A DNA stretch of 64,000 nt from Trichostrongylus colubriformis (Eukaryota; Nematoda; Chromadorea; Rhabditida; Trichostrongylidae): NCBI GenBank assembly GCA_963978905.1, contig OZ022261.1, positions 17,035,582-17,099,581 on the forward strand. The letters run 5' to 3'. Both the position numbers and the translations under genes were made by a program. Below, in pieces: positions 5,933 through 53,641 of the stretch (positions are counted from its first letter, which is position 1; the number at the start of each line of letters is the position of its first letter). The notes below the pieces were generated by a model that saw nothing but the letters and a program-made list of their open reading frames with translations, was not told where the DNA came from and made no database searches.

Positions 5933-6060
5933 AACTGACCGGCTTTTCGAATCGTGTCAGATGGGAGGTGAAGTCAGGGTCAAGCGAGGCGTCGCGGAAA
6001 ATTTTCAAAAATCACCTTCCTTTCTTCAGGTTCCGCTATATTTAGGATTTCTAACCAGCC
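5933..6060 (+). repeat. Left copy of a 128-bp duplicated block
   Basis: These 128 bases, from AACTGACCGG to AACCAGCC, appear identical by eye to 9161-9288 on the other side of the LTR element. Both contain the first 86 bases of a hAT-like repeat, whose CAGGGTCAAGCG start is at 5975 here and 9203 there. Only the right copy continues into the rest of that repeat, so the LTR insertion is flanked by a very long duplication instead of the usual 4-6 bp. Confidence 0.85.
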
Positions 6061-6080
6061 TTTTTAAGGTAAATTTAATC

Positions 6081-6127
6081 CGCAAGTACAAATCGTGGAC
6101 GGTAAACCGTCCACGATTTGTACTTGC
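6081..6127. repeat. Perfect palindrome at the left LTR junction
   Basis: CGCAAGTACAAATCGTGGAC (6081-6100) plus GGT is the exact reverse complement of the LTR's first bases, which end ...GATTTGTACTTGCG at 6127. The arms are 23 bases around a 1-2 base centre. The right LTR lacks the inverted half. A 20-base filler (6061-6080) separates it from the duplicated block, which looks like a repair or template-switch scar. Confidence 0.85.
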
Positions 6128-6335
6128 GCATTTTTCATTTACTTACTCCTTTTTTCACTTATTCATTTATTCATATGTTATGATTGGAAACTTACTTTGC
6201 TTTTCTCTGAGCTTTGTCATTATTTGAACTTTTCCATTTGTTGCAATCAGTGAGATACTCAGCGAGCTAGAAGCGTCGATGTTTTGATCAGAGGGCTTGA
6301 TTACGGACCCTCAGCCTCGCGCTGCGGCTTCTCCG

Positions 6336-6342
6336 TATAAAA
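6336..6342 (+). promoter_or_regulatory. TATA box of the 5' LTR
   Basis: TATAAAA in the setting CTCCGTATAAAAGGGCAG, a strong RNA polymerase II core promoter. Transcription would be expected to start about 30 bases further on, near 6366. The same motif lies at 8804-8810 in the 3' LTR. Confidence 0.75.
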
Positions 6343-6589
6343 GGGCAGTCATTCTAGGAGGAGGCATTCTGATCGCGTACCGACCATTCGCGTTTCTTCT
6401 CGCGTAGCAATCGGACTTTTCTACATTTTGAATGTATAGAAACTTTCCTTTTCTCAGTATTGAAGTGCCCTTTATACTCATATGGTGCTATGCTTTAACC
6501 TTTTGGGGTTCTGTTCAAAAAGGGTTGATTTGGGCAATTTTCACTTCTTTTAATTCGTGAACATTTGTTCGATTTTTACTTAGTTTAGA

Positions 6590-6595
6590 AATAAA
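6590..6595 (+). promoter_or_regulatory. Poly(A) signal AATAAA in the 5' LTR
   Basis: AATAAA abuts the first base of the SL1 leader. In the 3' LTR the equivalent (9058-9063) would place cleavage inside or just after the SL1 sequence, since cleavage usually falls 10-30 bases downstream. Confidence 0.7.
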
Positions 6596-6617
6596 GGTTT
6601 AATTACCCAAGTTTGAG
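6596..6617 (+). other. Exact SL1 spliced-leader sequence in the 5' LTR
   Basis: The 22 bases start GGTTTAATTACCCAAG and end TTTGAG. They are identical to SL1, the leader that nematodes add to mRNAs by trans-splicing. The next bases are GTCCTTC, not the GTAAAC that follows the leader in SL RNA genes, so only the mature leader is present. It lies between the poly(A) signal and the U5-like tail, where the R region of an LTR is expected. Confidence 0.92.
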
Positions 6618-6694
6618 GTCCTTCTCCACCACACACACACAAATCCGCGTGGCAAAAATCAGTTGGCGAGTTTGGTGTAGAGAGGGACTTCAAT

Positions 6695-6705
6695 TGGTGC
6701 ATCGG
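6695..6705 (+). promoter_or_regulatory. Primer binding site, tRNA-Gly type
   Basis: TGGTGCATCGG begins two bases after the left LTR. It is complementary to the end of a tRNA finishing CCGATGCA plus CCA, which fits nematode tRNA-Gly. This is the expected position for priming of minus-strand DNA synthesis. Confidence 0.8.
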
Positions 6706-7112
6706 CTTGTTCCAAGTGGTTACACGAAGCGAACTTCAGGTTGGTTTACAACTTTAAAAGTGGCTGTCTTTGCATGCAAGCTTTGCTTGTTTTTGTACGC
6801 ATTCGTTGCCAATTTCGGTAATCAATCGAGTTTGCTGGGGTGACTCATCCTTCGCGTACACCTTCTTTGTCTCGAAAAGCTCTCGCGTTGGGTCATTGAA
6901 AATCGTTATTCGGGTGTCTCAGAAACTCTCGCGTTGGACTATTGAGGGTTGAAACTCACCATAAAAATGACCTCACAACTTTCTTCCCACAAAAGATTGT
7001 TAACGCGACATTGTAACAAATTGGAAACGGTACTCTCGCGTTTCAAAGAAGAGAAATTAGAGACCTTGAAGGCTTCGGACGATAACCGTACTCCGGGGTA
7101 TGAAAGGAGCAC

Positions 7113-8462
7113 ATGTTTGTCGGGAGACCGGAGAAGCCCAAGGAGGAATGGGAGAGGGATGCAGAGGTCGCCCTTCTCCAGCTGGACAAGTGTATGAAGC
7201 GATTCGGAGCAGTCATCAAGGCCATGGAAGGCGAGATGGAGCAAGCAGAGAAAGACTTTAACGTAGCGCCTTGCCATACCAACGCCCAGCACATCAACAC
7301 GTTGTTTCGTCGAGCCTTCAAGAACTTAACCGCCGCGGACAAGGACCACGTTACTCAACGGTTCGAGACTCTTCAGAAAAAGGTGGACGAACAGAATGAG
7401 GAGATATCGCGTTTGAAGAAGATGTTAGATGCTAAGCCAAGTAGCGATGGAGACGTCGAAATGACGGACGATGCCTATTGGTCGCGTATGGTACAGGAAG
7501 TCCAAGGTGACACCGAAGTGGAGAAGGTGCAGACTTCTCCACCGAAACTCGCGTCCGATGGCTCCGATGATGAGGACGACAACGATCTAGACCTCAGATC
7601 GGCGGATGGTGACGAAGAAGAGGATCAACTGGTGATTTGCGACGACTGTAGTGAAGATCGAGCTGTCGAAAGAGTTGTGGAGATCGTAGCGGAAGAGCGA
7701 GTAGTGGAACTGGTACCAGAGGATCGAGCTGCGGATCGCGGGCCACAGGATCGACCTGCTGATCGCGTACCAGTTGATCGAGCTGCGGATCGCGTGCCAC
7801 AGGATCGAGCTGCGGATCGCGTGCCACAGGAACGAGCTGCTGATCGCGTGCCCCAAGATCGAGCTGCTGATCGCGTGCCACAGGATCGAATCGAACAGGA
7901 GGATCGTCGACACCCTCCCGTGCGGGACGAAAGAGAGCTGGAGCGAGTGATCGGGAATGTGCAGGAGGAAATCGACCACATGGAGAGAGCGATGGATAAT
8001 TTCCCGTATAGGAAGAGAGAGAGCTTCTCTAGAGGAATCAGACCGTTGAACCAATGCTGCTTCTGTAGCGTGAAGGGAGAGCATTTTTCCGACTCGTGTC
8101 CAACGGTAACTGACGGACAGGACAGATGGGAGATAATGCTAGAACGCTACTTCTGCCAGTACTGTCTGAACAGATGTGGGATGTACGACCTCTGCCAATA
8201 CAGATACAAGGAATGTTTTTATTGTGAGCGCGTAAGAGGCACACCCTTCGAGTACCTGATTCCGCGTGAACCTCATCATACGGCTCTTTGTCGAGTTCCG
8301 GATCAAAGAGGAAGAGCCCGTGCGCGTATCGAGGGAGCCAGGGAGGAGCTACAACGCCTTCTAGGAGAGCTGTCATTGGCGATAGTACTGCGAAGGCGGG
8401 AAGCGGAGAGAAGACAGGAGGAGGAGAGGCAAAGAGGACACGACGGGGCAGCCAATCGCTAG
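7113..8462 (+). CDS. Gag polyprotein of the LTR element
   Basis: 449 codons from the first in-frame ATG after a stop at 7101. Residues 1-110 are charged and helical. About 150-200 are acidic (runs of D and E). Residues about 204-257 form a nine-residue repeat of the DRAADRVPQ type. From about 315 there is a zinc-knuckle-like Cys/His motif (CCFC...H....C, a C-x2-C-x5-H-x4-C spacing), followed by more Cys/His clusters (CQYC, CFYC, ALC) to about residue 395. The C-terminal tail is rich in Arg and Glu. Gag packages the element's RNA into particles. A second frame from 6949 (a further ATG is at 6967) runs to 7197 and reads like a Gag N-terminus (basic, helical), so a one-base frameshift near 7085-7110 may have shortened this protein. 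Confidence 0.85.
   Translation: MFVGRPEKPKEEWERDAEVALLQLDKCMKRFGAVIKAMEGEMEQAEKDFNVAPCHTNAQHINTLFRRAFKNLTAADKDHVTQRFETLQKKVDEQNEEISRLKKMLDAKPSSDGDVEMTDDAYWSRMVQEVQGDTEVEKVQTSPPKLASDGSDDEDDNDLDLRSADGDEEEDQLVICDDCSEDRAVERVVEIVAEERVVELVPEDRAADRGPQDRPADRVPVDRAADRVPQDRAADRVPQERAADRVPQDRAADRVPQDRIEQEDRRHPPVRDERELERVIGNVQEEIDHMERAMDNFPYRKRESFSRGIRPLNQCCFCSVKGEHFSDSCPTVTDGQDRWEIMLERYFCQYCLNRCGMYDLCQYRYKECFYCERVRGTPFEYLIPREPHHTALCRVPDQRGRARARIEGAREELQRLLGELSLAIVLRRREAERRQEEERQRGHDGAANR
7722..7884 (+). repeat. 27-bp minisatellite inside gag
   Basis: Six units of 27 bases of the form GATCGAGCTGCGGATCGCG plus TGCCACAG keep the reading frame and encode DRAADRVPQ repeats. Units differ by a few bases. The opposite strand is also open because of the repeat, which makes spurious minus-strand frames. 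Confidence 0.85.
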
Positions 8463-8565
8463 AGGAGCGGAGAAGACTGGAGGGACCCCAGCAAGATAAG
8501 GATCTGTAGTAGCTTGGTTGTTGCTGATTTGTTGTTAGATTGCCTTGTTTGTTGTCGGGCGGAGT

Positions 8566-9160
8566 GACGGTAAACCGTCCACGATTTGTACTTGCGCATT
8601 TTTCATTTACTTACTCCTTTTTTCACTTATTCATTTATTCATATGTTATGATTGGGAACTTACTTTGCTTTTCTCTGAGCTTTGTCATTATTTGAACTTT
8701 TCCATTTGTTGCAATCAATGAGATACTCAGCGAGCTAGAGGCGTCGATGTTTTGATCAGAGGGCTTGATTACGGACCCTCAGCCTCGCGCTGCGGCTTCT
8801 CCGTATAAAAGGGCAGTCATTCTAGGAGGAGGCATTCTGATCGCGTACCGACCATTCGCGTTTCTTCTCGCGTAGCAATCGGACTTTTCTACATTTTGAA
8901 TGTATAGAAACTTTCCTTTTCTCAGTATTGAAGTGCCTTTTATACTCATATGGTGCTATGCTTTAACCTTTTGGGGTTCTGTTCAAAAAGGGTTGATTTG
9001 GGCAATTTTCACTTCTTTTAATTCGTGAACATTTGTTCGATTTTTACTTAGTTTAGAAATAAAGGTTTAATTACCCAAGTTTGAGGTCCTTCTCCACCAC
9101 ACACACACAAATCCGCGTGGCAAAAATCAGTTGGCGAGTTTGGTGTAGAGAGGGACTTCA
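8566..9160 (+). repeat. 3' LTR
   Basis: Direct repeat of the 5' LTR with four differences by eye. TATAAAA is at 8804-8810, AATAAA at 9058-9063 and the SL1 copy at 9064-9085. It ends CA, and the duplicated 128-bp block follows immediately. GGGCGGAG just upstream may be the polypurine primer site for plus-strand synthesis. Confidence 0.9.
9064..9085 (+). other. Exact SL1 spliced-leader sequence in the 3' LTR
   Basis: Identical 22 bases to 6596-6617, again directly after AATAAA. In a full-length transcript this would be the last templated sequence before the poly(A) tail. A trans-spliced 5' end would begin with the same 22 bases. Confidence 0.92.
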
Positions 9161-9288
9161 AACTGACCGGCTTTTCGAATCGTGTCAGATGGGAGGTGAA
9201 GTCAGGGTCAAGCGAGGCGTCGCGGAAAATTTTCAAAAATCACCTTCCTTTCTTCAGGTTCCGCTATATTTAGGATTTCTAACCAGCC
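9161..9288 (+). repeat. Right copy of the 128-bp duplicated block
   Basis: No difference from 5933-6060 was seen by eye. This copy runs on without a break into the rest of the hAT-like repeat (AATGCGTAAAAGGG onward), so it is the original locus and the left copy is the partial one. Confidence 0.85.
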
Positions 9289-25959: not shown

Positions 25960-27562
25960 CAGTGTGTCCCAAAAGTATAGATCCATCCTATTTTTCATCC
26001 TTATCTGCTGAATAAGACAGCAATTCCCGTCTTAACTTTTACCAGTAGTACTTGATGGCTGTCATGATTAAAGGCTTCAGTAAAACTGAAAACACAAAAC
26101 TGCAGAAATTTTATTTGTTTTTTTATCAAAAATAAAGGTGTTCCAAAAGTATAGGTCCACTTGGCTCTTCCGCCTTGCTTCCATCGAGAGGTAAGTTGTG
26201 AAGTAAATGTGTTGACGCATCGTTTGAGATTTACTCTACTGTGCCATGCCACGCGGAACGCACTTATCCGAGTACGAAAAAGGACAAATCCTGGCCTACA
26301 AATGAGGGACTCAGCAATCGCAATTTCTGAGAAGACGGGCCGATCCCACAACTTGATGAGCAGCTTCTGTCGCAACATGGACCTCTTAGGAACGAAAAAG
26401 AGAAGTGGAAGGCCGCAGAAGCTTTGTGAGAGGCAGAAGCGTCGGATCCTCAACGCTGCACCAATTCCACAAAGGGTGTTCGTCGTGTGTGTAGGGAACT
26501 GGCACCTACTGTATCGAAAAGCACTGTGCACCGTCTGCTCAAGTTGTCTCCTCACATCGAGCGAAGACGGTTTTCGTCCACCCCGTACCACATGAGAGCG
26601 CACGAAGCGGCTCGAATTCATTTTGCCGAGGAACATGTCCGTTGGACTCATCAATGGGATGATGTAGTCTGCAGGGTTATATTATTGACGTAGTATAGTT
26701 CACGGCGTATCAGTAATAGCGTTGCCGCTATCTTTTCTTATGAGAAAAGTCCAAATTGGATAAATTCGATGGCTTGGCAAGTTATTGGAAGGATCTGAGG
26801 AATTTGAGGCCGCGCTACTTCTCGAGGCGCGGATTTGCTTGTGGTAGTGTTATGGTTTGGGCCGCCTTCTCTCGTCTTAGTAAGAGCAGGATAGTAATCA
26901 TCATGTATCGTATGGATTTCAGGGCTTATCAGAACGCTCTAGAAAGTAATCAACTACCTTATAAACAGTGGTTTCCATCGGTGTGCTTCAATTTCCAACA
27001 AGATAATGCTCCTGTCCATGTGAGCGCCTCCACGAAGACGTGGCTCGAAGCGAGTAATATTAGTCTTCTTGAGTGGACAACCAAGTCGCCGGACTTGAAG
27101 CCAATAGAGAACCTCTGGGGGACCCTTGTTCGAGACGTTTACTCCGACTGCAAGCAATTTGACAACGTCGGAAAGTTGAAGAGAGCTATCCAGGAGGCTT
27201 GAGAGAGTGTGTCGCTAAGAACGATCGCGCAACTTGTTCAGAGCATGCCGAAGCGGATGATTGAGGCGACTGAAAGGTGGGGAAAGGTCACAAATTTTTT
27301 TAAAAACTGTTGTTGTTGATGATTTTGTTTGGTTAATCTTTGAAAAAGTTGGAATTAATATGTGGACCTATACTTTTGGGACACTGTGATTTTTGAAGAA
27401 AAAAGCAAATAAAATCATGCAGTTTTATGTCTTCAGTTTTACTGAGGCGTTTGATCGCTACTATGATCAGGTATCACAGATAAAAATTTGGGAAGGAATC
27501 GCTGGGCCATTCTGGAGATATGGAAAAAAAATAGGGTGGACCTATACTTTTGGGACACACTG
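25960..27562 (+). mobile_element. Tc1-like transposon with IR/DR ends
   Basis: It starts CAGTGTGTCCCAAAAGTATA, ends in the complement and is flanked by TA (25958-25959 and 27563-27564). The inverted arms are about 200 bases. Each carries an inner copy of the end signal (GTTCCAAAAGTATAGGTCCA at about 26134-26158 and its complement at about 27364-27388), the IR/DR layout in which the transposase binds two sites per end. Total length is 1,603 bp, usual for a Tc1 member. The transposase inside is broken. Confidence 0.92.
26245..27319 (+). pseudogene. Broken Tc1-like DD34E transposase
   Basis: The reading starts MPRGTHLSEYEKGQILAYK with an early stop, then continues through the paired helix-turn-helix region (KTGRS, RSGRPQKL, STVHRLL) and the catalytic core. 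QQDNAPVH and SPDLKPIENLWG are 34 residues apart between the second Asp and the Glu, the DD34E pattern. The first catalytic Asp of the FSDEKK-type motif is replaced by Tyr (codon about 26739). Frameshifts at about 26480, 26690 and 26750 and a stop near 27200 inactivate it. The CGSVMVWAAF motif is intact. Confidence 0.88.
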
Positions 27563-39560: not shown

Positions 39561-41322
39561 TAATAACCCGAACTTGGACACCTGCCTTTAGCAGGTGGCT
39601 TTAGGAGCACCAGTTGAGGAATCAGCAGCTTATATTTGCGTCGTGATGACTGAGAATGTCATCTATTACTGTACAGTATCTCGCTGCTCCATTCGTTCTG
39701 CATTGATAGTTCTTCATAAATCCACAGGTGGTTCGACGTCCACTGAAAAAGGATGATATTCTTGGAGTTTCGAAAGTGTAGTGGAAGATAGACATGCGAT
39801 AGAAAATCGCAACATTCATGTAACCATACGACTATTGGCAGGCCCCTACATGCTTATGATCCTCAGAAAGTATAAGGAATTTGGATGCCTCACCAAGTGA
39901 GTGAATCAGACAAAGGCCAACATCTTTGCTTTGTTGTCCTTGAAAAGGATTGCAAGACGAATCTGTTGATCATGAAAAAGTGCACTCCTGGCAATGTGGT
40001 GTGAACTCGTACAATCGCTCACATTTTTTGAAAAATCGACGGCGGGCGACGGATTAAACGGTAGAAACCGTCGCACCGTCATAACTTCGTTAAACAAGAA
40101 TAAAATGGGGGAAAATTAGAAGCGTTGGATTCGACTGGATGCGACAAATCCAGCGACCTATGTGATGTCGAATTTTGATAGGTAGGTCACCAGCTTCTCG
40201 CTAAAAGCTGCAAAGATTTCTTTTTTAACCTCTGGCAAGCATACAACCTTTTTCGGCATACATACATCACATGTTCAATTGTTGCTCGCCCATGCTCTGC
40301 ACAATCATCTTTTTTTGTGAGTCATCTTCAAGTTTTAGTAAAGTTTTCAGCACGAAGTTCCACGACATTTCTGAGAGATTTTGAGCTTATTTCGTCAGAA
40401 TCGATGAACCAATTTTGAAAATAACTCATTTTTCACAGGCTACTGACTGCGCACTGCAAGATTACCTTGACTTCCGAATTACAGACAGACGAATCTTTTA
40501 TGATGAAGCTTCAAACATCGGTTAACGGCATACTTTAAACGGTGAACAATCCCCCTCCTCTTTCCCAAAATAATATTGATCAATAAAAATCGCATGAGAT
40601 CTTCGAATACAACATCCTACGCTTCCAGAAAATGAAAGCGGCATTGAAACAGTGCCCAGAATCATGAATTTAAAAAGGGTGTCAATTGCAATTGAAAGTA
40701 GGAATGAGGACGTACACCAATTAGTTTCAGCGAAACTTATGCTGATGTATTCAGTGTCAAAAATGCTGTTCATCCGTGTAAAAATCACCTCACTGCGAGA
40801 GTTTCGAATTTTTACCATTATTCTCGTATTCTCTTCAAGCGTTGTCGACTCCAACGCCGCTTGCTGACCTCTTGATTACTCTGCACCGTTCAGGACAGGT
40901 GAGGTCAGTGCCTCGTGGTATTATCACGTGATAAGGCTTTGGGAACCGGACGAGATGCACTTGATTTCCTTTGTCTCCTAACACTCTTTTTTATGAGAAA
41001 TTGTGCGACCTAATTGGGAATTAACAACTTTCGGGAACAAATTTTATGAACATATTGACGCACTCTCTTTTGGAGCCTATGGCAAGGACCAGGGGATTTT
41101 CGCCAAACGAATGAGATATTCATTTTTGCCCATTTAGCGAACGACACTCCCCCATATACACTTTTCAAGCCGAACTGGGATAATTTGTGATGGTTCACCT
41201 TTTAGTCACCGTCAAAATCGACATTGGGGTGGCTGAGGGCATGGGGCCAAAAATATTTTTCTGAAATCATTCCTTGTCGGCCTATCAAACGTGCCGACAA
41301 GAAGCTTCATAATACTCATATA
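39561..41322. other. Unassigned spacer
   Basis: No recognised element. An open frame of 110 codons on the minus strand (40522-40854) overlaps one of 71 codons on the plus strand. Neither has a known motif. Confidence 0.4.
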
Positions 41323-41324
41323 TA

Positions 41325-42900
41325 CAGTGCTCTGCAGGATGATACAGCCACCTATAAATTGTCCAAAAACTCTGTATGCAGAGTGATTAAAAAAGTCTCT
41401 CGGTAAAAGATGTAGCCACTGTGGACGCGCATTCGGGCATCGACATCAAATTGTAGTTTGATAACACAGAAAAATTTTCTCTTCATTTGCTGTGGAAATG
41501 TCGTTTTTCCTATTCTACAAAATGATAAAGCCACTTCGGATTCTGTCTTCGCTTTTGACCTTTTCTATTGACCTTTACTTTTGACCTCTACTTGCTGAAG
41601 GTGTATTGTTGCTGTAGACCCATCATTTTCAGGTGATTACAAGGAGAAAATCTGCTGCTATCTGGCTTGAAGAAAGATCAGTTTATCCCAAAATAAGACC
41701 TACAGACGTGCAAATGTCAGATCGCGCGAAAATGAAGACGGCTTTGCGCACTCCTCGATAATTCAACTAAGCTACTGCAGGATACGAAAGCAGAAGGAGT
41801 ACTGAGGTCCAGCTACGCCTTTAGATAAAGACGCGCGCAGTATTTAAAAAGATGAGACAATTTTTCCTAGGTCATGCTCGGGAACAAGATCTTAGCTGGA
41901 GTTGAGGTGTCAACAAATGCTGTTTATAGGAACCTGAAGAAGTGCAAATCCATTTCCAGGCGAGAAATGAGGAGAGCAGCGCTCAGAACCCCACAATATC
42001 GCGAAAACGGGATTTTTCGTCAAGAGATGGATGAGAGCAGATCGGATAGAAGTGCTTGATACGTTCAAAAGTTTGTACACCTTCCCCTTACTGTTTTTCT
42101 CCATGCTGTCCTTCCTTATTAGAAAAAACTCAGATTCGACTGCCCGGGCGACTACCAGCACCACAGCATGAGGGATAAACTTTGGTTTTCAAAAGATCTT
42201 TAGAGAAGGAGGTGTCATGGCGTGGGGACCAGTTTTCTTTGGAGTTTTCATTTCGTACTCGGGAGGATAAGTCATCCGACGACCGAATCTTCATGCTTCG
42301 TACCCTTCTCTCGTCGTGCGTGTTTAAAAACCTTGTTTTGATGCAAGTTGATGGGCCATTTCCTGTCAACCGGAGCACTCCATCATCGTGAAGCCGTCAC
42401 CGAATGGACCTTCTGATCTGGACGACGAATGGACCCAACCTTTTCAGATGGAGAATTCGTTGGAGTTCCATGCTAAAAAGGAGTTACGTGGAGAGCAGCC
42501 ACTCCGAAGGAGTTCGGGAGTTTAAGCAGGCCCTCATCAAAGCATGGCACCAAGTGGACTAAAAACATTCCAAAAAAATTCATATGGGCCCAGATAGTCA
42601 AAATTTTTGGAAATTCTAGATAAAGTAGCTCTCTGCTTTCAATATTATCATTTTTCTCCTTTTTGTTGCTTTCTCATAGTGCGATACTCTAATCTGTTCA
42701 GTGGCTGTATCATTTTGCAGAATAGGAAAAGCGACATTTTCGAAAAAGAAAAAATTTCTGTGTTTCCCAGCTACAATTTGAAATTGATGCAAAGCGCGTT
42801 CTTACTGGCTACATCTTTTATTCACAGACTTTCTTGAATCACTCTGCAAACAGAGTTTTTAGACAATTCATAAGTGGCTGTATCATTATGCAGAGCACTG
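41325..42900 (+). mobile_element. Tc3-like transposon with IR/DR ends
   Basis: Ends CAGTGCTCTGCAGGATGATA and complement are flanked by TA (41323-41324 and 42901-42902). The arms are about 210 bases. An inner copy of the signal (ACAAAATGATAAAGCCAC near 41518 and AGTGGCTGTATCATTTTGCA near 42700) gives IR/DR ends. Total 1,576 bp. The transposase inside is degraded. Confidence 0.88.
41640..42610 (+). pseudogene. Degraded Tc3-like transposase
   Basis: Fragments in several frames fit a Tc1/Tc3 transposase: a basic N-terminal part (ALRTPQYRENG near 41979), then DYQHHSMRDKLWFSK near 42153 followed by EGGVMAWGPVFFG, which corresponds to the GPD...YWHD and GGGVMVWG motifs. C-terminal pieces continue to about 42610. 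The region between about 42290 and 42400 that should carry DNA and SPDLNPIEN motifs is not recognisable, so the catalytic core is lost. Confidence 0.65.
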
Positions 42901-42902
42901 TA

Positions 42903-44307
42903 TGTTCTACAAAGAAACGGGTGGTGGAGCTGACTAGTATATTGGGCCGAATGGCATGTGTAGGTAGGAGCCAAAATGATACCTCTCAGTGCCTGTAGCA
43001 TATCAGGGAGGGCCACGTGAATCTCTATAGGAGTAAAAGCACTTTGCAAGCTTTTGGAAGGTATACGGAAAAAAACAAACGAGCACATTCATCACGAATC
43101 CAAACATTGATCTTGAAACCACGAGGACATCCCGCTAACCGTTACCCCATCGGAACTCCGACGATGACATTTCGCAACTCGCATAAATCCTGTAGTACAG
43201 GTTGCGTCGTATATTACAGACGCCTTTAATTTCGCTCTCAGGATCGTTAAGCATATTCGAGTTGATTGTTCGAAGCTGCTTTATGGCATATATGTACAAC
43301 TCATCTTGAATGGCCACGGTGACCTGGAAGTCTTCCTTCGTAAGAATTTCAAACATCATTCGATATAATCTTTCGCGGGAATCGAGTGGTATACATTCAA
43401 CTCACAAAATAAAAATGAATCAAAAGAAAAAGATAGTTTTCAGTAGTGTGCACATGAAGGCACTGTTTAGGGTCATACCAAGGAGGGGGAGGCTTACCGA
43501 TAGATAACAGCCGCGATAAAATTGGGCCACTGTTGTTGGATTGAAATCACCAAACTATTTTCCACTTTTTAACTTTTCAGAATCATGCAGCAACTGTGTT
43601 GTGCTACGCCGAGCAGATGACTTGGAAAAAGCGCTGTCTGTTGATCACGCTAGTAGAAGGGGAAATTCATATTCGAGCTGCAAGGATGTTGTCCTGAAAG
43701 TTTTTGCAACATACTGCCGAATATCTCTGTGCGAGTAAAAGGATTTGCGCTCACTACTCACTGTTGTTGGCCTTCTTTGCACAATATTCCTTGTCAGCTG
43801 GTTCAATGTTTGTTTGTCTGCATTTTTTGATGCTTGTCCTGGACCTACATACGGGTTCCTGTGTGTGGAATTGCTACAGTAGACACGCGTTTGGTTGGCA
43901 CTCACAATCATCACTGATTGCTATTTGCTGCACCTCGCAAATAAATAGACCATGACTCGGCATAGGATAACTGGTCCGGCAACAACTTTATTCCAGTTTT
44001 TTTTTTCAATTGCATGGTCACTCTTCGCTCAGTTAAGCAACATGAAACCCGTACTCCAGACTTATCCACTGCAGTGCTTGCAGTTAAACGGCCTGAAGTC
44101 ATCATATGATTGGTCATCAAAATCGATGCCATTACTTTTAGATCATTCAAACCCGCAATGGTAGTTGAAGTACAACAGGTGCTGATCCCCGCAGGCTCCC
44201 ACTATAGTTTGATCAGCTTCAGAGTTTGATGTTGAAAATGCTATTTCGAGTGCCATGTTTGCAGGACCACATCGCTCTATTAGAGAGTGGCATAAGGCAG
44301 ATAAGAA
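42903..44307. other. Unassigned spacer upstream of the BEL/Pao relic
   Basis: It may include the lost LTR and leader of the BEL/Pao element, but I could not match any part to sequence behind it. No gene was recognised. Confidence 0.4.
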
Positions 44308-46470
44308 GTGGCAGGGAATATTTATAATGAGTTATGGGACGAGTATATGAACCGCCCAAATAAGTCCGACAAAAAGGACATTATGGCAGAATTAGAGCAA
44401 ATAGAAGACGCATCAAGAACCCAGCCAACCATAGCAGAGTCGAATGAGATAATATACATGCTCACTGCTAGGCTAGACGAATCTAAATGTGCGGAGGATA
44501 GGTTAGCCATAAAACTTGGCTACACCACGTACAGAGCCACTGGGAGCAATGAACCAGAAGGGTCAACCCTTAGTATTACTCCGGAAATCGCAAACGAGAC
44601 CTCTGATATCAGTCCAGAATGAACCAATCATATCGAAGCCAACGCGTCTATGGGAAGGCTGAGGAATTTTCCGAATTTCGCGCAGTCTATAAGACCCTAG
44701 CCTGGTTGCGATGAATTGCCAATCATCAAAAAAATCATCTCTCGAGAGAATGTCTTGAGGGCAGGACAGAAATGGTAATACAGGGAATCCAACCTTTACC
44801 GGAAAACTACGATTGGATGGTAGAAACCTTCACGAAACCTACTGCGACTACACTGGCGATAGGTCAAAAATAATTCACAGCCTAGTTTCATTCATCCCAG
44901 CAAGCGATGAAGCAGAGAGCTGCTCTGTTACCTTCGAGAACACTCAAGTCCTTGTGAACCAAATGGTATCCGCAGGATGTGATGTGAGAAAATCTTGTGA
45001 CCCAATGTGGTGCGAGACGATTCTTGCCAAATCCCCACGGGAAATGGTTAAGCCTGTACTTATGGGAAGCCAGACAATGGTCGATTTACCAATTAGGGAA
45101 CTTTTATGCTATCTTAAAAAAAGAAATAGCCGCCAAGTGCTATGTGAAAACAGGCTCGGTCATGCTGAGCGCACACCGGGCTACGAGATTGCCAACAAAG
45201 TGAACTCAAGTCACTGGCAAAACGCCCGACCCAACTGCAACGAAGACTGCATATTTAGTCATAGGCAACATCTGTCAACGGCTTGCCGAACGGTTACAGA
45301 CCAAAACACTCGTCGTGGAATATTGAAAGAAGAGAACCGTCGTTGGAAATGTTTCTCTTTACAACATAGTAGCTTTGACTGCGAAAAGGCAGGTTGTATT
45401 CATTGTGGACAAAACCACCACGCATCACTATGTTTCAAAAAAGATCAAACGCAAACGACGGGGCAAAACCATCTCCGTTATCCAAACTATGATTGGGAGG
45501 AGATTAATGCTCGAGGTTCCGATCAAGGAAACACCAGAGCAGAGCAATCGCTCAGATCTCAGCGCAACCACAGCGGTAACACTAGCACTGGTCTTGGGAC
45601 TTATAGTGACTTCAACAGTCACGGAACATAGTGGCTTCAACAGTCACGGAACTTTTTAAAACAACACCCACATGAGGACAGACGTGCCTCAAGCTAAAGA
45701 GGAAAACCTTGCCACCTCTTAGCTAGTATTAAGGACCGCTGGAGGCAACCTGTGGAATTTCAGGAAGCAAGCTTACGAAAAAGTTCTTTTTCTCTTTGAT
45801 TCTGGGGCACAAAAAACCCTCATAGAGGAAGAAGTAGCCCATCAGTTTGGCCTTGCAGGAACTCACAATTCTGTACCATGTCAGGCATTGGGGGCCATTT
45901 GAAAGCCCTGTAGGAACAACTAAAGTTTGTTCTGCATTTGGCAAAGAGGTAGAACTGAGAACTCAGACAAAGCCCATACTCACGAATGGCTTTGAAGTGT
46001 CAAGTTCACGGAGCCGGATATTGTTTTCTTAAAAGAAAGTAACATCTGTTTGGCGAATTCCAAATGCGGGGAGAACACTAAACTACTCGCATATTAGTTG
46101 GCTTGGATTACTCCCACGAGCTGGTACTGGGTCCAAATCACACTCTCAAAACACCTTCAGGGTTACATATCGTAAAAACAATATTTGGTTCCGCAGGGTA
46201 CGGCAAGACGTCAACAATGTCAACAATGCACACAACGTGCAATGTCAGCATTACCAGTAATTTCTGGTATAGAATAACAACGTCTCACGAAAATGGTGGA
46301 CATAGCTGTGACAAGTTCAAATCTATAGTGGGTGAACTAGTTACCAGAACCACTCGTCGTTGCCCAACAGAACTCATACAAGAAAACGAGCCCATCCCGT
46401 TCTCAGAAGGGAAGAAAAGTAAGAGAAAAAGGCACTTCTATATAATCGCAAACTTAGGCACTTAACACGC
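44308..46470 (+). pseudogene. BEL/Pao retrotransposon relic, gag and protease
   Basis: 44308-44622 encodes the helical N-terminal Gag part (MAGNIYNELWDEYMN...). 44813-45631 encodes the nematode BEL-type Gag core with VNQMVSAGCDVRKSCDPMWCE. A Cys/His knuckle region follows (KCFSLQHSSFDC, CIHCGQNHHASLC, about 45358-45431). LFDSGAQKTLIEEE at about 45792-45833 is an aspartic protease active site (Asp at 45798-45800), and GLDYSHELVLGPNH follows near 46110. Stops and frameshifts occur at about 44622, 44720, 45235-45290, 45630 and 45900. Reverse transcriptase, RNase H and integrase are absent, so the relic is 3'-truncated. No LTRs were found. Confidence 0.85.
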
Positions 46471-48384
46471 TCACGCAACTTATTTTCACGTGAAGCGTGT
46501 TCGCCCATGGTGCAGTAAGGTCAATGAGTCAATAAAAATTGCGTTTTACCGCAGGAGGTTCCTCGCACTCCTCGCTGAACAACTCCTCGGAAGTCCTATA
46601 GTCAACCATGAGCAACACACGAAAGGTGCCAGGAGACCCTTACCCCTTCCCATTACCGTCTACTCAAAAATTCCGCCACTTCCTCTTCTCAAATCAATCA
46701 ATGCAATGCACTTCAATCAGTGCCGTGCCAACCCTTCATTAGGCTCATGCCCACCTCGCTGGGGAAACAACCCCACAATAATCGGCTCGGTGGCTAGTGA
46801 TCTAGACGGCTGCCAGAATACATGGCGGTTAAGCAGTGCTTCAGTGCCAAGAGCCAAAATACTATAGATCGTAATGGGGCATTTCAAGGCACCGTGCATA
46901 GAGCGGGTTCGCAGGCAGTCTCAACACAGCGGCGTCGTCCTCCTCAAGATAATTCCGTGATCTTTTGATCTTCGTCATATCATATCACATATATCTACTT
47001 TTCCATAACCATTCGTGATTTACTAATTCTACCTAGGTTCACAAACATCGTCGACCTGTGTCCTGCCCCTCGATCGTCGTCCAGCCACAGCCCTCAATCG
47101 CGGTGTAACCATTGCCAACGATCGCCGTCCAGCCTCTCATACCTGCCACTGCTTCAAAACTCCCACAAATAAGAAGAAAAATTCTATGCACATGTCATAA
47201 CTATGCATTTTGTAAAACTCCATTGCCGGCGGAGTATGGTCGTCTATTACGATGATCCCTCGTCGTCTCGCTGTCTGAGACGACGTTCTATACGAGCGTC
47301 CGTACATATGATCCATAGGGTCAACGGCTCCCCAATATAGTGGCCATATTGCTTCTTTTCCAACGTTACGAGCAATACGCTGGTTTGCTCAGCTTACTTG
47401 TCTACAGATAAATGTATCATTATCCCGTCTACATATACTGTCTCACATGAATCCACTGAACCGCCACAACATGGGTGAATACTAGGACATTTGTGTGCAA
47501 AGTACAAAACTGTCGAAAGTGACAGCTTTCAGCATGACCTACATTCGTTACTTTAGGTTTATCATGAGTAAGTGTCAATGACCAAAATCAAATCTACCAC
47601 CCAATGTTACAATAGTCGGTGTATTGTGTGACTGATGCTCGCCTCAACTACTCGTCATAAGCGAGAATGGTCACATTTTGTAGTTTAATAAAATCACAGA
47701 TTTTTCAACGTCAAAGTATGTCAAATCCAGTAGTTGTAGAGTCGCTGATATGCATAGTAATCTCCTTCCCACTGCGATTGCAATTACACAAGGCCATTTC
47801 TCGTAGCGCCGCTACTCATTTAACCGAATGATCACGGCGCCTTTTGCATGTATACATATTGCTGACGCGTTGACATACTGCTGCAAAATCCTATTCGATC
47901 TTTTTCTGATCCCTTTTTACTTCTTGTTTGATCGAGAACGCTTCAATTCGCGCCTCGTTTGAGTCTTCCACTGCTTGGATGATTATAAGGCTTATGCTAG
48001 GCGAGAGCTCGTGCAATCGAATCTCGATCGGACTCAGATGAGTAACTGAACATGGTTTCGGAGTAGAATGCTCGATGCAAAACTTGGCCATGAGTACAAG
48101 AGCAATGCACTGAGCGTATACCCCGCCTGCAATTCTTAGCACTTAAACCAAGCATTTGAAGCCACTGGCTGCGAGTTTAGTAGCTAAGTTGTGTGGCAAA
48201 GGCTTTGACTGCCGTGGTGGGTGACATCATATACAGAACATGATGTGCCACCTTGGACCCTTCTGGAACCTAGTGCTCCGTTCGCTGCATAACGCGCCAT
48301 ATACTGTCCACCTAGGCCCCTAGCATTTATTTATATGAGATTTTTCTTCATTTATATACCATTCCCTCATCAAAGAGGACTCTC
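46471..48384. other. Unassigned spacer after the BEL/Pao relic
   Basis: An open frame of 125 codons (46490-46867) has no motif I know. CGTCGTCTC/GAGACGACG forms a small hairpin at about 47262-47286. The CGTCG- and CGATCG-rich stretch 47047-47140 could be retroelement non-coding sequence, but no repeat partner is in the window. Confidence 0.4.
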
Positions 48385-48389
48385 TTTCA

Positions 48390-48515
48390 AAACAACTAGG
48401 ACACTTTTTGAGCAAACTTGTTCTTTTTTGGAGTACCCAGAACATTTTCAAACCAAGTTGGACGTTTTTCGAACCAAATTGGACGTTTTTCAAACAATCT
48501 GGGCCCTTTTTCTAA
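48390..48515 (+). repeat. 24-bp minisatellite
   Basis: About five degenerate units of about 24 bases of the form ACCAAGTTGGACGTTTTTCG; the two central units are nearly identical. In one frame they encode an eight-residue FQTKLDVF-type repeat inside a 73-codon open frame (48335-48556), which I regard as chance. Confidence 0.6.
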
Positions 48516-48805
48516 AATACAAGTGGATGCTACGAATCAAGTTGTATAAGGAATAGACTTATCCTTATGTGAGGCATTCGGAGAAAGAGTGCGGATGACC
48601 CGAAGAAAAGAATCGACATGAGCCAGGGAACCAGGGCAGGCTTTGCAAGTGCCCACGCTCCAGGACATCTCAAGATATCTCGCCACCGATATGGAGAGCT
48701 CCCGAGCGCCCCTTTCGCGCGAACTAGTAAGGATCAAATCGAGGAAGGTAGGCCACAGGAGCGGTACTGCACTTGTGGGGCCAGTGCTGGAAAAGTTTTT
48801 ATTTA

Positions 48806-49695
48806 TTGGGTTGTAAAGAAAGTTTTGGCCGTTTTCGCAATTTCAACTTCTGGAGATCATAACTCGGCTCCGACTGCTCGACTTCTCATGAAATAAACAC
48901 TAATAGATTTGCTACACTTTTGACAATACCAAGGATATTTGCATATTTCATTTTGATGAAGCATTGAAGATTTATATTGTGTGAAGTAAAAAAAGCCGGC
49001 TCCAAATCACCATCCTTCCTGAACACAGTGCTACTGAAGGACCCTAACCAGATGTTTGGAGAAGTGGGATTTAGTTAGCGCTAGATCTGGTGAATACGAT
49101 GGATGAGCAAGGGCTTCAGCCAGCAACTGCTCCAACTACTGAAAGAGAATTTGTGAAAAATGCGCTTGCGCACAGCTGCTCTGAGGGGGTCCCGCGGCAC
49201 TCATTTTTTGGGTTTTTCCAAATCAAGCCTACTTGAGGTGGTCAACAAACTTTGTATGTTGAGGGCCAATACTTTGCATCCCTTGCAAGTATGGGCGCTA
49301 TCGCTTTCTGCCGTTTTAGTTAAGGCGATTTGATCAATTGAAAATTCAAGCGACTCGTTCTCATTTCTGCACTTCTGAAACCAGTGACAATGTGTTCCAT
49401 TCAATGCTTCACCCACTCCCCTTGCAGCACTCACATTCCTGGTCACCTTCGCTGGGTCTCGGTTCAACAACAACTCGTGAAGTGAAGTTATCTAAAAAGT
49501 GCCATTTTCGCAGTACTTTAAAATTTCCATGATAATTTGAAAACCTTGTGGCACTCCAAAAAAACATTTTCAGAATGAGCAACTTTTCGTCTATCTAAGG
49601 AGCACAATATGTAAGCTGATTCGTGTTGACGCGCTCTGAGATTTGAATTTATCTCGTGAACGCGAAGAACCGGCCAGAACTTTTCTTGCACCTGA
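48806..49695 (-). mobile_element. Degenerate mariner, copy ii
   Basis: TTGGGTTGTAAAGAAAGTTT at the left and the complement of TCAGGTGCAAGAAAAGTTCT at the right are flanked by TA (48804-48805 and 49696-49697). On the minus strand at 49201-49473 a frame resembles the mariner helix-turn-helix region (ALNGTHCHWFQKCRNENESLE). The length is 890 bp, so part of the usual 1.3 kb is deleted. Copies i and iii match its interior. Confidence 0.7.
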
Positions 49696-49697
49696 TA

Positions 49698-52366
49698 TTA
49701 TTATATGCAGGAGGTACTTCATCATTCGAAGAGGTCTCCAATTAGAAAAAGAGAACAGCAAACAAAGTAAGGAAAACGGGCCATTTCGATGAGTATGATG
49801 CCCATGTGAAAAAAAAACCTACAGGTTGATTTAAAACATGCCTTGGATGGTTTGAAAATTTCCAATATGATTTGCACCGTGTTCTAGATAATTTGAGAAA
49901 CGTCAGCTCCGATTCTAAAGAGTTTTCAATGGTCTGGGAAGCACTGTCCCGCCGTTTACCCGCGCGAAGCACTCTCCCTTGGTCTGGGAAGCGTCTAAAG
50001 CAAATTTAAATTTTTCTCAATCATAAGTGAAATGGAATGTGTATGTACAAGCAACCAAAAAGGAATTGGTACATGGACCTGTGCTCTCCTCCGTGAGTGC
50101 ACCCTTACCTTTACCAAATCCCTCATCTAAATCAGACACTTTACGACGGATAGACACAAGACATAAATTTCAATGGACCTATTGACATAGCGGTGAACAG
50201 ACACCTATATATGATAAAAAATGATCAATTTTTAATATAGATGGTTCTTTGAACTTCATTGTTCAACAACTAAATCTTGGTTATGTATATAGAAGGCTCG
50301 GTTTTCTGTTATCTTTATTGATGATATTTCGGGTATAGGTCCTTCTTCAGATCAGCTGAAACTATCATTAACAATATAACAACATGAGCGAAAGGATGCA
50401 TAGTAATGGAAACTACCAACCTAGTGCTACTGTTTGGACTGGGAGGAAGGGGAGGTAGTTTTTACGGATGTCGACTCGAAACGAGGGAGTTGGTAGCATA
50501 TCCTATATATGTGCAAGTAAAAGTTAAAGTTAAGTTATTGCCACTATCTCACGCATCACAGTGAGTGCTACATGTTGTTGTGTAATTACTTTATGCATGA
50601 CACGGTAATCGTATGCATCGCGTCACACGCAACATCCCTCGTAGTGATTTCCTGTCCTATGATAATCTATGGAATGTACACTCACAATATCTGAAACCTG
50701 GAAGGCTGTCCGTGAAAAGTTCGACCGAGTTTGACCATTTTGGAAAGCGGGAAAACGAGCTAATCTGTTATATCACATACGCACAACCAATTGCATATGA
50801 GAGGTTAAAGATTCATCCTAATTCAAATGGTGTCTGCTTTGTCAGATAAGTTCGATTGCTCAAGGATTATTGATCAACTATCGCACTACACAGCCCTTCT
50901 TCAGCACGACCGTAACTGGAACGGCTATTATATATAGCCTTAGTGCCAATATGCTTTGCAATTTTTAGATGTACCAGCAAAGACTCACATGTAGTGAGGA
51001 ATGAAGAGATGCGGTTAGGCAATCGATCGGTATTTTCATGGTGAGCGTGGTGAAGAGCATCGGCTCCTCCAGCACCGCGCCCTTAATTTTCCTAAAACAT
51101 ATGATTGCGAGCTGTGGCGGTGGCATAGGCTTCTCACTGTCGTTACCTAGAATGCGGCGAATGAACTGAAGAATCTCGTTCTAGACAAATCCCAGCTTTA
51201 GCTTGCAAGTGTGCGATCGGCCGTCTTGACTTATCGGCCCCAAGTGTCCTGATTCCTTACCGTAGTCTCTCCTACTCGAGCGTTCCTTTTTCCGATTCCC
51301 TCTGCGTCTGATGCTGTGCATCGTTCGCCGTGACCTACTGTCGCCATCGTGAACATGGGAGGCTGTGCTGCCATACATTGTCAGTGAAAGGTTTGTGAGG
51401 CTGAACCGATTCGATCGCGGGTGTGACACACGTGGTGAATTTACGATGAGTGCGATGAGAACCAACTAGAATTATGCGGTGCGACTCTGTATCGGCCACC
51501 CCGGCATTACTCCACTGAAAGTGAAGAGTTGTTGGCTTTAAGCGATTTCCTTAAGAGCTTGAGTAGTTGATCTGAGATATTCACCCAACCGCGACGCTTT
51601 ACAATCCTTGGTCATTCCGCCCCTGTTCCGAGCTCTATGGACACTCTTCTTTCCAAGATTGATGCCTCCAGACTTTGATCTGCTGCCCTGAAATGTGCAA
51701 GAGCGAACTAGACACATGTCTTCAGAGTAATTGCGAAACACTTGCACTTCGATGTTGGGGAGAAAAAGCGATTTGTTTAAAATGCATCGCTTGTATCGCA
51801 GACCCATTAATTCAACCCACTTACAGGGTGACCAAAGTACATGAGCGCAACTCGAAGCACTTTTGTGCAAACTTCATTTTGAGCTTCAGTTGACGCAATA
51901 AGTCATTTGATTTGCACTCCTTTTGCTGCGATTATTAGTCTGTGACCCTTTGAGTAATTTGTTCTGCAGTCCTCATGGTACACTGTGGTTCGAGTAATTT
52001 GTTCTGCAGTCCTCATGGTACACTGTGGTGTAAATTTTCGATAAATGATGCCTCTGAGGCTTCCAGGTACCCTTAATGATTCCCCTTTTGCCTTGATTAA
52101 CTAGGGAGCTGTTCAACCTCTGACGATGAGCGATATTTGTTGGAGACTGGATCCCGAACTGCAATGTATATACAGTAAGCTAGTGCAATATGGTAATTAT
52201 ATTTGAGAGATGTTATAGAATGCACTGATATGTCGAACCTCTGCAAATCATTAAGTTATGAAAGAAGTAAGATGTAGCGCATATTTGTCGCAGCATAATA
52301 TGGATCACCCTGGAACAGTAACGAACGGATGACCTCATTGCTTCTTTGGGAAGCCTGCGTCAATTG
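49698..52366. other. Unassigned spacer with a 40-bp tandem repeat
   Basis: At 51952-52031, GAGTAATTTGTTCTGCAGTC plus 20 more bases is repeated twice without visible difference. GGTCTGGGAAGC recurs at 49931 and 49981. No gene was recognised; an open frame of 110 codons lies at 51538-51870 on the minus strand. Confidence 0.4.
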
Positions 52367-52368
52367 TA

Positions 52369-53641
52369 TTAGGTTGTCGCAAAATTAATTTTGATTTCAA
52401 GGTATGTAAAATAAGTAGATTTTTTATCCTGAACTATTCCACTTCAAGGAAAACCAAGCATTCCATTTGGTAGGTTTTTTCTGCTCTTTCAAAAATTCTA
52501 TGAATGTCGCTCTAATTGTTCCAGCCGGCCTTTTACAGGGCTGCGTATAATCATGAAGCAACGCGACTATCGAGTCATCTTGCTTTACGAATTTAAATTG
52601 GGACACTCCGCAGCGGAGGCAGCCCGTAATCTCAGCAGTGCTTTTGGGAGAATTGTCCTTGCGAACGTACAGTGGAGCTCTGGTTTAAAAATTTGCTTCT
52701 GGCGATTTTGATCTCGAAAAGAAGTTGAGTCGCGGCCGCAGGTGTCACTTAATAGTGAAGATTTGAAGAAAGCCGTCGAAGCAAACCCGGAGACGAATAC
52801 TAGTACGTTAGCAGAAGACCCAGGCGTACATTACTCCACAGTGGCCAAACACTTATTGGAAATCGGCAAGGTGAAGAAGATGTTGAAGTGGGTGCCTCAT
52901 GAGCTGACCGATGAGCAGCGTCTGGCACGTCTCGACACCTGCTCCCACCTCCCAGATTGCTATAAAAATGAGCCATTTGTAAACCGCATTATAACTGTAA
53001 ATGAAAAATGGGTTCTTTATGATAACAGGAAAGGGGGATTAGTCTGGATAGATAAGGATGCTAATCAAAAAACTTTTCTAAGCCCAACCTTCACCCTAAA
53101 GATTATGATAACTGTGTGGTGATGTTGTAAAGGTGTAATCCACTACAAATTCTTGCAACATGGTCAGTCAGCCACAGCAGAGTCTCAATGTTGTGATCAG
53201 GAGCAAATGTACAGGAAGTTGTAAAGATTGTGGCCGGCGGTGGTGAATAGAAGAGGACCGATCCTGCTGCAGGACAACGCAAGGCCACACACCTCACAAA
53301 TTACTCCGCCAAAATTGACCCACTTGAGTGTAAGACTTCTCCCTTACCCAGCGTATTCTTCCGACCTCTCCGACAAAAAATCACTTTTTTCGAGTCCTCA
53401 ATTCTTATCTGCGTCGGAAACCGTTTACTAATTTGGGCGATGATGAATGTGCCTTCCTTAAGTTCGTTGATTCTCGTGATAGTAGTTTTTATAGTGAAGG
53501 CTTGAAATTATTACCTGTTTGTTGACAAAAATGCGTAAATTCTGATGGTTTTTACTTCGATTGATAAACTTGTGTTTAAGCTGAGTTATAGTAAATTGAA
53601 GTATGCGGTCCGTTTTCGAAATTAATTCTGCGACAACCTGA
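52369..53641 (+). mobile_element. Near full-length mariner
   Basis: Ends TTAGGTTGTCGCAAAATTAA and complement are flanked by TA (52367-52368 and 53642-53643). At 1,273 bp it has the usual mariner size. The end sequence is close to that of cecropia-subfamily elements such as Hsmar1, which I give only as a likely relation. The transposase is present in pieces. Confidence 0.9.
52551..53450 (+). pseudogene. Inactive mariner transposase
   Basis: It starts MKQRDYRVILLYEFKLGHSAAEAARNL (about 52553). A frameshift near 52640 precedes the open block 52742-53122, which carries LLEIGKVKKMLKWVPHEL (the WVPHEL signature) and ITVNEKWVLYDN, in which the first catalytic Asp is Asn. After a stop at 53122 the frame continues with NRRGPILLQDNARPH, which keeps the second Asp. 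The last motif reads YSSDLSDKK, so the third Asp is lost. Two of three catalytic residues are missing. Confidence 0.88.

What the first reader, a model, noticed from the sequence alone, without database searches (positions are those of the whole stretch)
6596..9085. SL1 spliced leader embedded in both LTRs, placed where R should be
The exact 22-nt SL1 leader is in each LTR (6596-6617 and 9064-9085), immediately after AATAAA and followed by a 75-base U5-like tail and the primer site. The sequence after the leader is not that of an SL RNA gene, so the mature leader was captured. Known: nematode mRNAs receive SL1 at their 5' ends, and LTR elements need identical R sequence at both RNA ends for strand transfer. 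Inference: a genomic RNA trans-spliced with SL1 would start with the same 22 bases that end the transcript, so the host leader could act as R and renew itself at each cycle. SL1 ends in AG, so it could also serve as the acceptor for the next trans-splicing. Alternatively a TATA-driven start near 6366 gives a longer R and SL1 is a fixed relic of one capture.
Basis: partly seen in the sequence, partly recalled or inferred. Interest (0 to 1): 0.93.

Follow-up and report, generated by a model that had tools for sequence, protein, structure and literature searches.

The report
Host splice leader inside retrotransposon LTRs
A worm retrotransposon carries an exact copy of the host's 22-letter SL1 leader in both of its terminal repeats, most likely copied from a trans-spliced RNA; similar SL1-flanked elements are known from Brugia, and whether the element uses the leader to copy itself is open and testable.

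Summary
Exact SL1 lies at 6596-6617 and 9064-9085, the only two window matches within 3 mismatches. Each copy directly follows AATAAA and precedes a 75-nt U5 tail and a primer-site candidate. The LTRs differ at 4 of 595 sites, none in SL1. No SL RNA family matches: this is the leader, not its gene. The host is probably Trichostrongylus colubriformis. The element is short and non-autonomous; its main ORF has relatives that, in two database proteins, follow BEL/Pao pol or an env-like stretch. Prior art: in Brugia malayi 60 of 120 non-gene SL1 copies lie within 1 kb of PAO retrotransposons, occasionally one on each side (PMC7181701, passages). Best reading: SL1 was captured when a trans-spliced genomic RNA was reverse-transcribed and its strong-stop DNA jumped to the poly(A) end. 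SL1 as a self-renewing R fits the anatomy but is untested, and SL1's end is a mediocre splice acceptor. The decisive comparison of copies could not be run: 17 requests did not complete.

The parts
6098..6692 (+). Left LTR (595 bp shared with the right LTR); the base before it (6097) is G where the right LTR has T
   Evidence: (4/595 differences, at 6188, 6250, 6272, 6470)
8566..9160 (+). Right LTR; with T8565 it starts TG, and it ends CA
6336..6341 (+). TATA box; predicted Pol II start at about A6366, 30 nt downstream
   Evidence: start site inferred, not mapped
6366..6595 (+). 64% AT stretch between predicted start and SL1: R in the ordinary reading, outron (discarded 5' part) in the trans-splicing reading
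   Evidence: 6422-6595 69% AT; window 56%
6590..6595 (+). AATAAA poly(A) signal abutting SL1 (also 9058-9063)
6596..6617 (+). Exact SL1 leader, left LTR
9064..9085 (+). Exact SL1 leader, right LTR
6618..6692 (+). 75-nt U5 tail predicted to fold into a hairpin (-25.6 kcal/mol; 3 of 200 shuffles as low); in longer folds the last 5 SL1 bases TTGAG extend its stem by pairing with TTCAA 6689-6693 (6693 is the first base after the LTR)
6695..6706 (+). Primer-site candidate TGGTGCATCGGC, complementary to the 3' end of tRNA-Gly(GCC) as recalled
   Evidence: tRNA identity recalled, not tested
6967..7197 (+). Short ORF (76 aa) whose first part resembles the beginning of a gag, from recall; overlaps the next ORF in another frame
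   Evidence: no Pfam match above cut-off
7113..8462 (+). 449-aa ORF with cysteine-rich, NC-like C-terminal region; relatives in Trichostrongylus, Cooperia, Haemonchus and Ostertagia
5933..6060 (+). 128-bp direct repeat, left flank copy (right copy 9161-9288 starts at the LTR end)
6077..6132 (.). Palindrome at the left LTR edge (27-nt arms, 96% complementary, 2-nt gap)

Best explanation
A nematode BEL/Pao-type LTR element captured the mature SL1 leader. A genomic RNA was trans-spliced with SL1 at an acceptor in U5, upstream of the primer site. Reverse transcription from the tRNA primer ran through U5 to the capped 5' end, giving strong-stop DNA that ended in the complement of SL1. It then jumped to the poly(A)-proximal 3' end of an element RNA and was extended through AATAAA into U3. 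After completion both LTRs read U3...AATAAA-SL1-U5. Today the RNA most likely starts at the TATA-directed site near 6366. SL1 then lies at the R/U5 border as inherited sequence, at the end of an R of about 245 nt, with poly(A) cleavage falling inside SL1. Shown: the exact leader, its place in both LTRs, the absence of SL RNA gene sequence. Inferred: the route of capture, the start site, the cleavage site, and that no trans-splicing is needed now.
For: Exact 22 nt in both LTRs; no SL RNA family match; TATA and predicted start 30 nt apart. Hexamer start to SL1 base 15 is 20 nt, which fits an A peak about 20 nt upstream of cleavage sites reported for ESTs of six species (PMC4360255, passages). 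SL1 near PAO elements, occasionally on both sides in one orientation, in Brugia, read by those authors as leaders added to expressed PAO elements and integrated with them (PMC7181701, passages). SL pieces in mobile elements of flatworms, mainly LTR and LINE (597 loci, PMC12582326, passages; six elements in Schistosoma, PMC5832876, passages). Cer1's 8-kb RNA is not SL1-led (PMC3315495, passages).
Against: Passive inheritance does not by itself explain 22/22 identity, although the LTR pair is young and only 0.15 differences would be expected in 22 nt, so the pair has no power. SL1 next to Pao elements in two distant nematode groups suggests repeated capture or a use. The last SL1 bases extend the U5 stem more than chance would often give. 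No LTR without SL1 (pre-capture state) was found, and no transcript was seen.
Confidence: 0.5

Rival explanations
1. SL1 is the working R. The LTR transcript from about 6366 is trans-spliced at the end of the encoded SL1, so the genomic RNA starts SL1-U5-PBS. The same transcript is cleaved inside SL1 in the 3' LTR. The first 15-20 nt of SL1 are then the only repeat needed for strand transfer, and the host leader rewrites these bases each cycle.
For: AATAAA abuts SL1, so cleavage falls inside it. AT-rich, outron-like 230 nt upstream (64%). The U5 hairpin starts right after SL1 and the trans-spliced RNA would keep the primer site. The last SL1 bases extend the U5 stem; 0.57% of random window 5-mers would. 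SL1-bearing Pao elements also in Brugia. A coinciding poly(A) and SL1 acceptor site is recalled from C. elegans SL1-type operons (not seen here; [quoted passage not shown]
Against: The acceptor TTTGAG|G has a G at -3, disfavoured as recalled, and scores below the AGs ending at 6457, 6588, 6739 and 6922; use of 6739 or 6922 would remove the primer site. Cer1's 8-kb RNA is not SL1-led. No transcripts or other copies could be examined.
Confidence: 0.33
2. SL1 is a captured sequence kept for another cis role, such as a U5-stem or poly(A)-site element or a mark of host-like RNA, with neither trans-splicing nor a role in strand transfer.
For: TTGAG pairs with TTCAA at the LTR end and lengthens the U5 stem.
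Against: Needs only a few of the 22 bases, so it does not explain the exact full leader. The fold of the 118 nt ending at SL1 is no better than shuffles (102 of 200 as low).
Confidence: 0.1
3. The SL1 came by recombination or gene conversion with an SL RNA gene, or by assembly error.
For: SL RNA genes are multicopy in nematodes (196 of 316 SL1 signatures in Brugia are matches to the gene). The flanking 128-bp repeat and palindrome could be assembly artefacts.
Against: The match ends exactly at the exon border and no SL RNA family matches. Both LTRs carry it within otherwise collinear sequence.
Confidence: 0.04

Closest known systems
SL1-flanked PAO LTR retrotransposons of Brugia malayi (PMC7181701; passages seen, supplement not seen)
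   Same: SL1 not in SL RNA genes, near BEL/Pao elements, occasionally two same-strand copies, one on each side
   Different: Here the copies are placed inside both LTRs between AATAAA and U5, in a probable strongylid, in a short element lacking pol; the passages seen do not mention R or strand transfer, nor where in the LTR the Brugia copies lie
Flatworm mobile elements with partial SL (PMC12582326, 597 loci; PMC5832876, six elements; passages seen)
   Same: Leader sequence in mobile elements (mainly LTR and LINE in the first paper), read as possibly trans-spliced then integrated; the Schistosoma paper adds that assembly chimeras are possible
   Different: Other phylum; partial leaders in the first paper; no LTR placement described in the passages seen
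Cer1, Gypsy element of C. elegans (PMC3315495; passages seen)
   Same: A nematode LTR element with an SL1 acceptor and an mRNA found with and without SL1
   Different: SL1 is added to the spliced 2.4-kb mRNA; the 8-kb RNA is not SL1-led; no encoded SL1 in the LTR mentioned in the passages seen
SL1-type operons of C. elegans (recalled, no call)
   Same: Poly(A) site and SL1 acceptor at one place, used alternatively
   Different: Host gene pairs, not LTRs

Membership tests
BEL/Pao LTR element | Paired LTRs with TG...CA ends | tested here: met
   Right LTR T8565-G...CA9160; the left LTR lacks the first T
BEL/Pao LTR element | Own BEL/Pao pol (RT, integrase) | tested here: not met
   No pol between the LTRs: the long plus-strand ORFs there are the 449-aa ORF and the short gag-like one. 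Assignment as a derivative rests on relatives: P0003 carries the ORF behind a stretch for which 10 of 14 listed homologues (P0003 itself counted) bear PF05380; P0003 itself hits no Pfam family
BEL/Pao LTR element | tRNA primer site after the 5' LTR | tested here: inconclusive
   TGGTGCATCGGC two bases after the LTR; tRNA match recalled only
BEL/Pao LTR element | Short integrase target duplication (length recalled) | tested here: not met
   128-bp exact flanking repeat and a palindromic left edge instead
SL1-bearing PAO elements (Brugia type) | Intrinsic SL1, not an SL RNA gene | tested here: met
SL1-bearing PAO elements (Brugia type) | Two same-strand SL1 copies, one on each side of the element (occasional in Brugia) | tested here: met
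SL1-bearing PAO elements (Brugia type) | SL1 within 1 kb of PAO protein-coding sequence | tested here: inconclusive
   SL1 lies about 0.5-0.6 kb from the 449-aa ORF, but that ORF is linked to PAO pol only through relatives
SL RNA gene | SL RNA sequence and fold after the leader | tested here: not met
SL1 as renewing R | Genomic RNA starting with SL1 joined at 6618 | not testable with these tools
   no transcript data
SL1 as renewing R | SL1 conserved above its surroundings among copies | not tested
   The genome search answered none of 17 requests (first, last)

The most novel reading that the evidence does not exclude
A retroelement that uses the host's trans-spliced leader as its terminal repeat R: transcript starts are discarded, the host supplies the 5' end by trans-splicing, and an encoded copy of that leader beside the poly(A) signal gives the matching 3' end, so the host rewrites R at each cycle. 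Because host mRNAs share the leader, their cDNAs could also land on the element's 3' end, giving a route for gene capture. The Brugia elements would be further cases.
Probability: 0.33. Interest if true: 0.9.

Novelty: new member of a known kind. Interest (0 to 1): 0.62.

Why it matters
The exact placement at the R/U5 border in both LTRs points to one concrete step, first-strand transfer, for how a leader can enter an LTR. It also makes testable whether an LTR element can hand the definition of its RNA 5' end to host trans-splicing. If it can, R is not copied from the element at all, and Pao elements of trans-splicing animals would have a way around the need for a fixed transcription start.

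Tried and rejected
SL RNA gene: rejected (no SL RNA family among the Rfam hits). Chance: rejected. Other SL1 or LTR copies in the window: none beyond the two LTRs, apart from the inverted 23-nt LTR match that is the palindrome at the left edge. SL1 in viral contigs and in prokaryote genome contigs: 0 hits each, as expected for a nematode sequence. The ORF in viral contigs: 26 stretches matched a pattern, none confirmed by tblastn. A protein search with the frame read through SL1 and U5, to find LTR copies in predicted proteins: no candidate. Another LTR pair near the gag-like ORF at 44.8 kb: no direct repeats of 60 nt or more in 40000-52000. Papers: 10 counted searches (one search was an input error). 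None of the listings or passages that I saw describes SL1 as R; 13 papers were opened, each by passages only. The C. elegans acceptor matrix is approximate and recalled. Two WormBook DOIs and two papers on trans-splicing were not held, so SL1-type operons rest on recall. Structure prediction was not run, because it would not bear on SL1.

Full report
Observation. The 22-nt SL1 leader is present letter for letter at 6596-6617 and 9064-9085; these are the only two matches on either strand with up to 3 mismatches, and 100 shuffles gave none. By base composition 1.3e-8 exact matches would be expected, and no other run of 12 or more SL1 bases occurs in the window. The same 22 letters are given as canonical SL1 for Haemonchus contortus, a strongylid (PMC7652881, passages), and were the SL1 query in Brugia (PMC7181701, passages).

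Anatomy. The LTRs are 6098-6692 and 8566-9160, with 4 differences in 595 and none in SL1. That is a young pair; only 0.15 differences would be expected in 22 nt, so the pair says nothing on whether SL1 is kept specially. In each LTR the order is TATAAA (6336 in the left), a predicted start at about A6366, an AT-rich stretch (64%; 69% from 6422), AATAAA (6590-6595), SL1, and a 75-nt U5 tail ending CA; two bases after the left LTR comes TGGTGCATCGGC. The last fits the 3' end of tRNA-Gly(GCC) as I recall it; no call tested this. The U5 tail folds into a hairpin of -25.6 kcal/mol (3 of 200 shuffles as low). In longer folds the last SL1 bases TTGAG extend its stem by pairing with TTCAA at 6689-6693. 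Only 0.57% of random 5-mers from the window could do so, a modest hint that SL1 is integrated in the U5 fold. Other folds: 6366-6760 z -2.33, 3 of 100 shuffles as low; 6366-6595 15 of 200; the 118 nt ending at SL1 102 of 200, no better than chance.

It is the leader, not the gene. No Rfam family reaches its gathering score in the 64 kb. With E up to 10, 6540-6760 gives four weak hits, three miRNA families on or around the U5 stem and one lncRNA, and no SL RNA. The match ends at the exon border (recalled).

Host and element. The 449-aa ORF at 7113-8462 brought 7 proteins, from Trichostrongylus colubriformis (3), Cooperia oncophora (2), Haemonchus contortus (1) and Ostertagia ostertagi (1); only the 7993 candidates sharing most words were scored. 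The best, P0001 from T. colubriformis, is reported as 100% identical over 51% of the query. The alignment shows one residue of difference and a longer C-terminus that runs to the LTR edge, so it is another copy or allele. The ORF has a cysteine-rich, nucleocapsid-like end; Pfam gives only matches below cut-off. In P0003 it follows a stretch for which 10 of 14 listed homologues bear the Pao peptidase family PF05380, some with PF17921 and PF18701 (the stretch searched also takes in the first residues of the ORF). In P0007 it follows a stretch that looks to me like an env with a membrane anchor, by eye and without family support. These may be gene models that fuse neighbours, but both put the ORF behind BEL/Pao-type genes. 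The window element has no pol or env, and its short gag-like ORF (6967-7197) is in another frame. I take it as a non-autonomous deletion derivative.

How SL1 came in. A leader in both LTRs implies that it passed through the step that makes LTRs. If a genomic RNA is trans-spliced at an acceptor between poly(A) site and primer site, the strong-stop DNA ends in the complement of SL1. A jump to the poly(A) end of an element RNA then yields AATAAA-SL1-U5 in both LTRs. This explains full length, exact exon border and position together. It is inference from known retroviral replication (recalled).

What it does now. Two readings share that origin. (A) The RNA starts near 6366, R is about 245 nt, and SL1 is inherited. 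(B) The RNA is trans-spliced at SL1's own end each cycle, and SL1 is R. Position does not separate them. For B: the hexamer abuts SL1, so cleavage about 20 nt on from the hexamer start (A peak about 20 nt upstream of cleavage sites, PMC4360255, passages) falls inside SL1; the upstream stretch is outron-like; the spliced RNA would keep U5 and primer site; and SL1-bearing Pao elements recur in a distant nematode. Against B: the acceptor TTTGAG|G scores -0.6 on an approximate recalled matrix (90th percentile of all AGs in the window), below the AGs ending at 6457 (1.3), 6588 (-0.1), 6739 (3.4) and 6922 (0.7), the last two of which would discard the primer site; [quoted passage not shown] I hold A at 0.5 and B at 0.33.

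What is known. In Brugia malayi, 316 SL1 signatures include 120 that are not in SL genes; 60 of these lie within 1 kb of PAO elements, and an occasional configuration is two same-strand SL1 copies flanking one element, read as leaders added to expressed PAO elements and integrated with them (PMC7181701, passages; supplement not seen). In flatworms 597 loci with partial leaders in mobile elements, mainly LTR and LINE, were discarded as SL gene candidates (PMC12582326, passages), and six Schistosoma elements hold SL, with assembly chimeras named as an alternative (PMC5832876, passages). So leader capture by Pao elements is in print. I saw no statement of SL1 as R in the listings of ten searches or in the passages of the 13 papers opened.

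What failed. Viral and prokaryote collections hold no exact SL1. Thus the one comparison that would separate A from B was not made.

Noticed in passing
5933-6060 and 9161-9288: An exact 128-bp direct repeat flanks the element, the right copy starting at the LTR end; far longer than a usual integrase target duplication (recalled), suggesting insertion by break repair or an assembly artefact.
   Followed up: partly
6077-6132: Palindrome at the left LTR edge: the flank is the reverse complement of the LTR start, as if the cDNA end had folded back and been extended; the expected first T of the LTR is a G here.
   Followed up: partly
7638-7907: Array with a 27-bp period inside the ORF over about 270 bp, encoding a charged nine-residue repeat.
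   Followed up: no
7113-8462: ORF with an NC-like cysteine-rich end whose relatives lie behind pol or an env-like stretch in two database proteins, unlike an ordinary gag; the place reminds me of CERV in Cer1 (recalled; PMC10309623, passages). Another copy reads on to the LTR edge (P0001).
   Followed up: partly
44759-46867: Three ORF fragments that look by eye like a second BEL/Pao gag-pol remnant; no direct repeats of 60 nt or more in 40000-52000, and the first fragment, the only one scanned, has no Pfam match above cut-off.
   Followed up: partly
26155-27202 and 52712-53122: ORF fragments that look by eye like Tc1/mariner-type transposase remnants.
   Followed up: no
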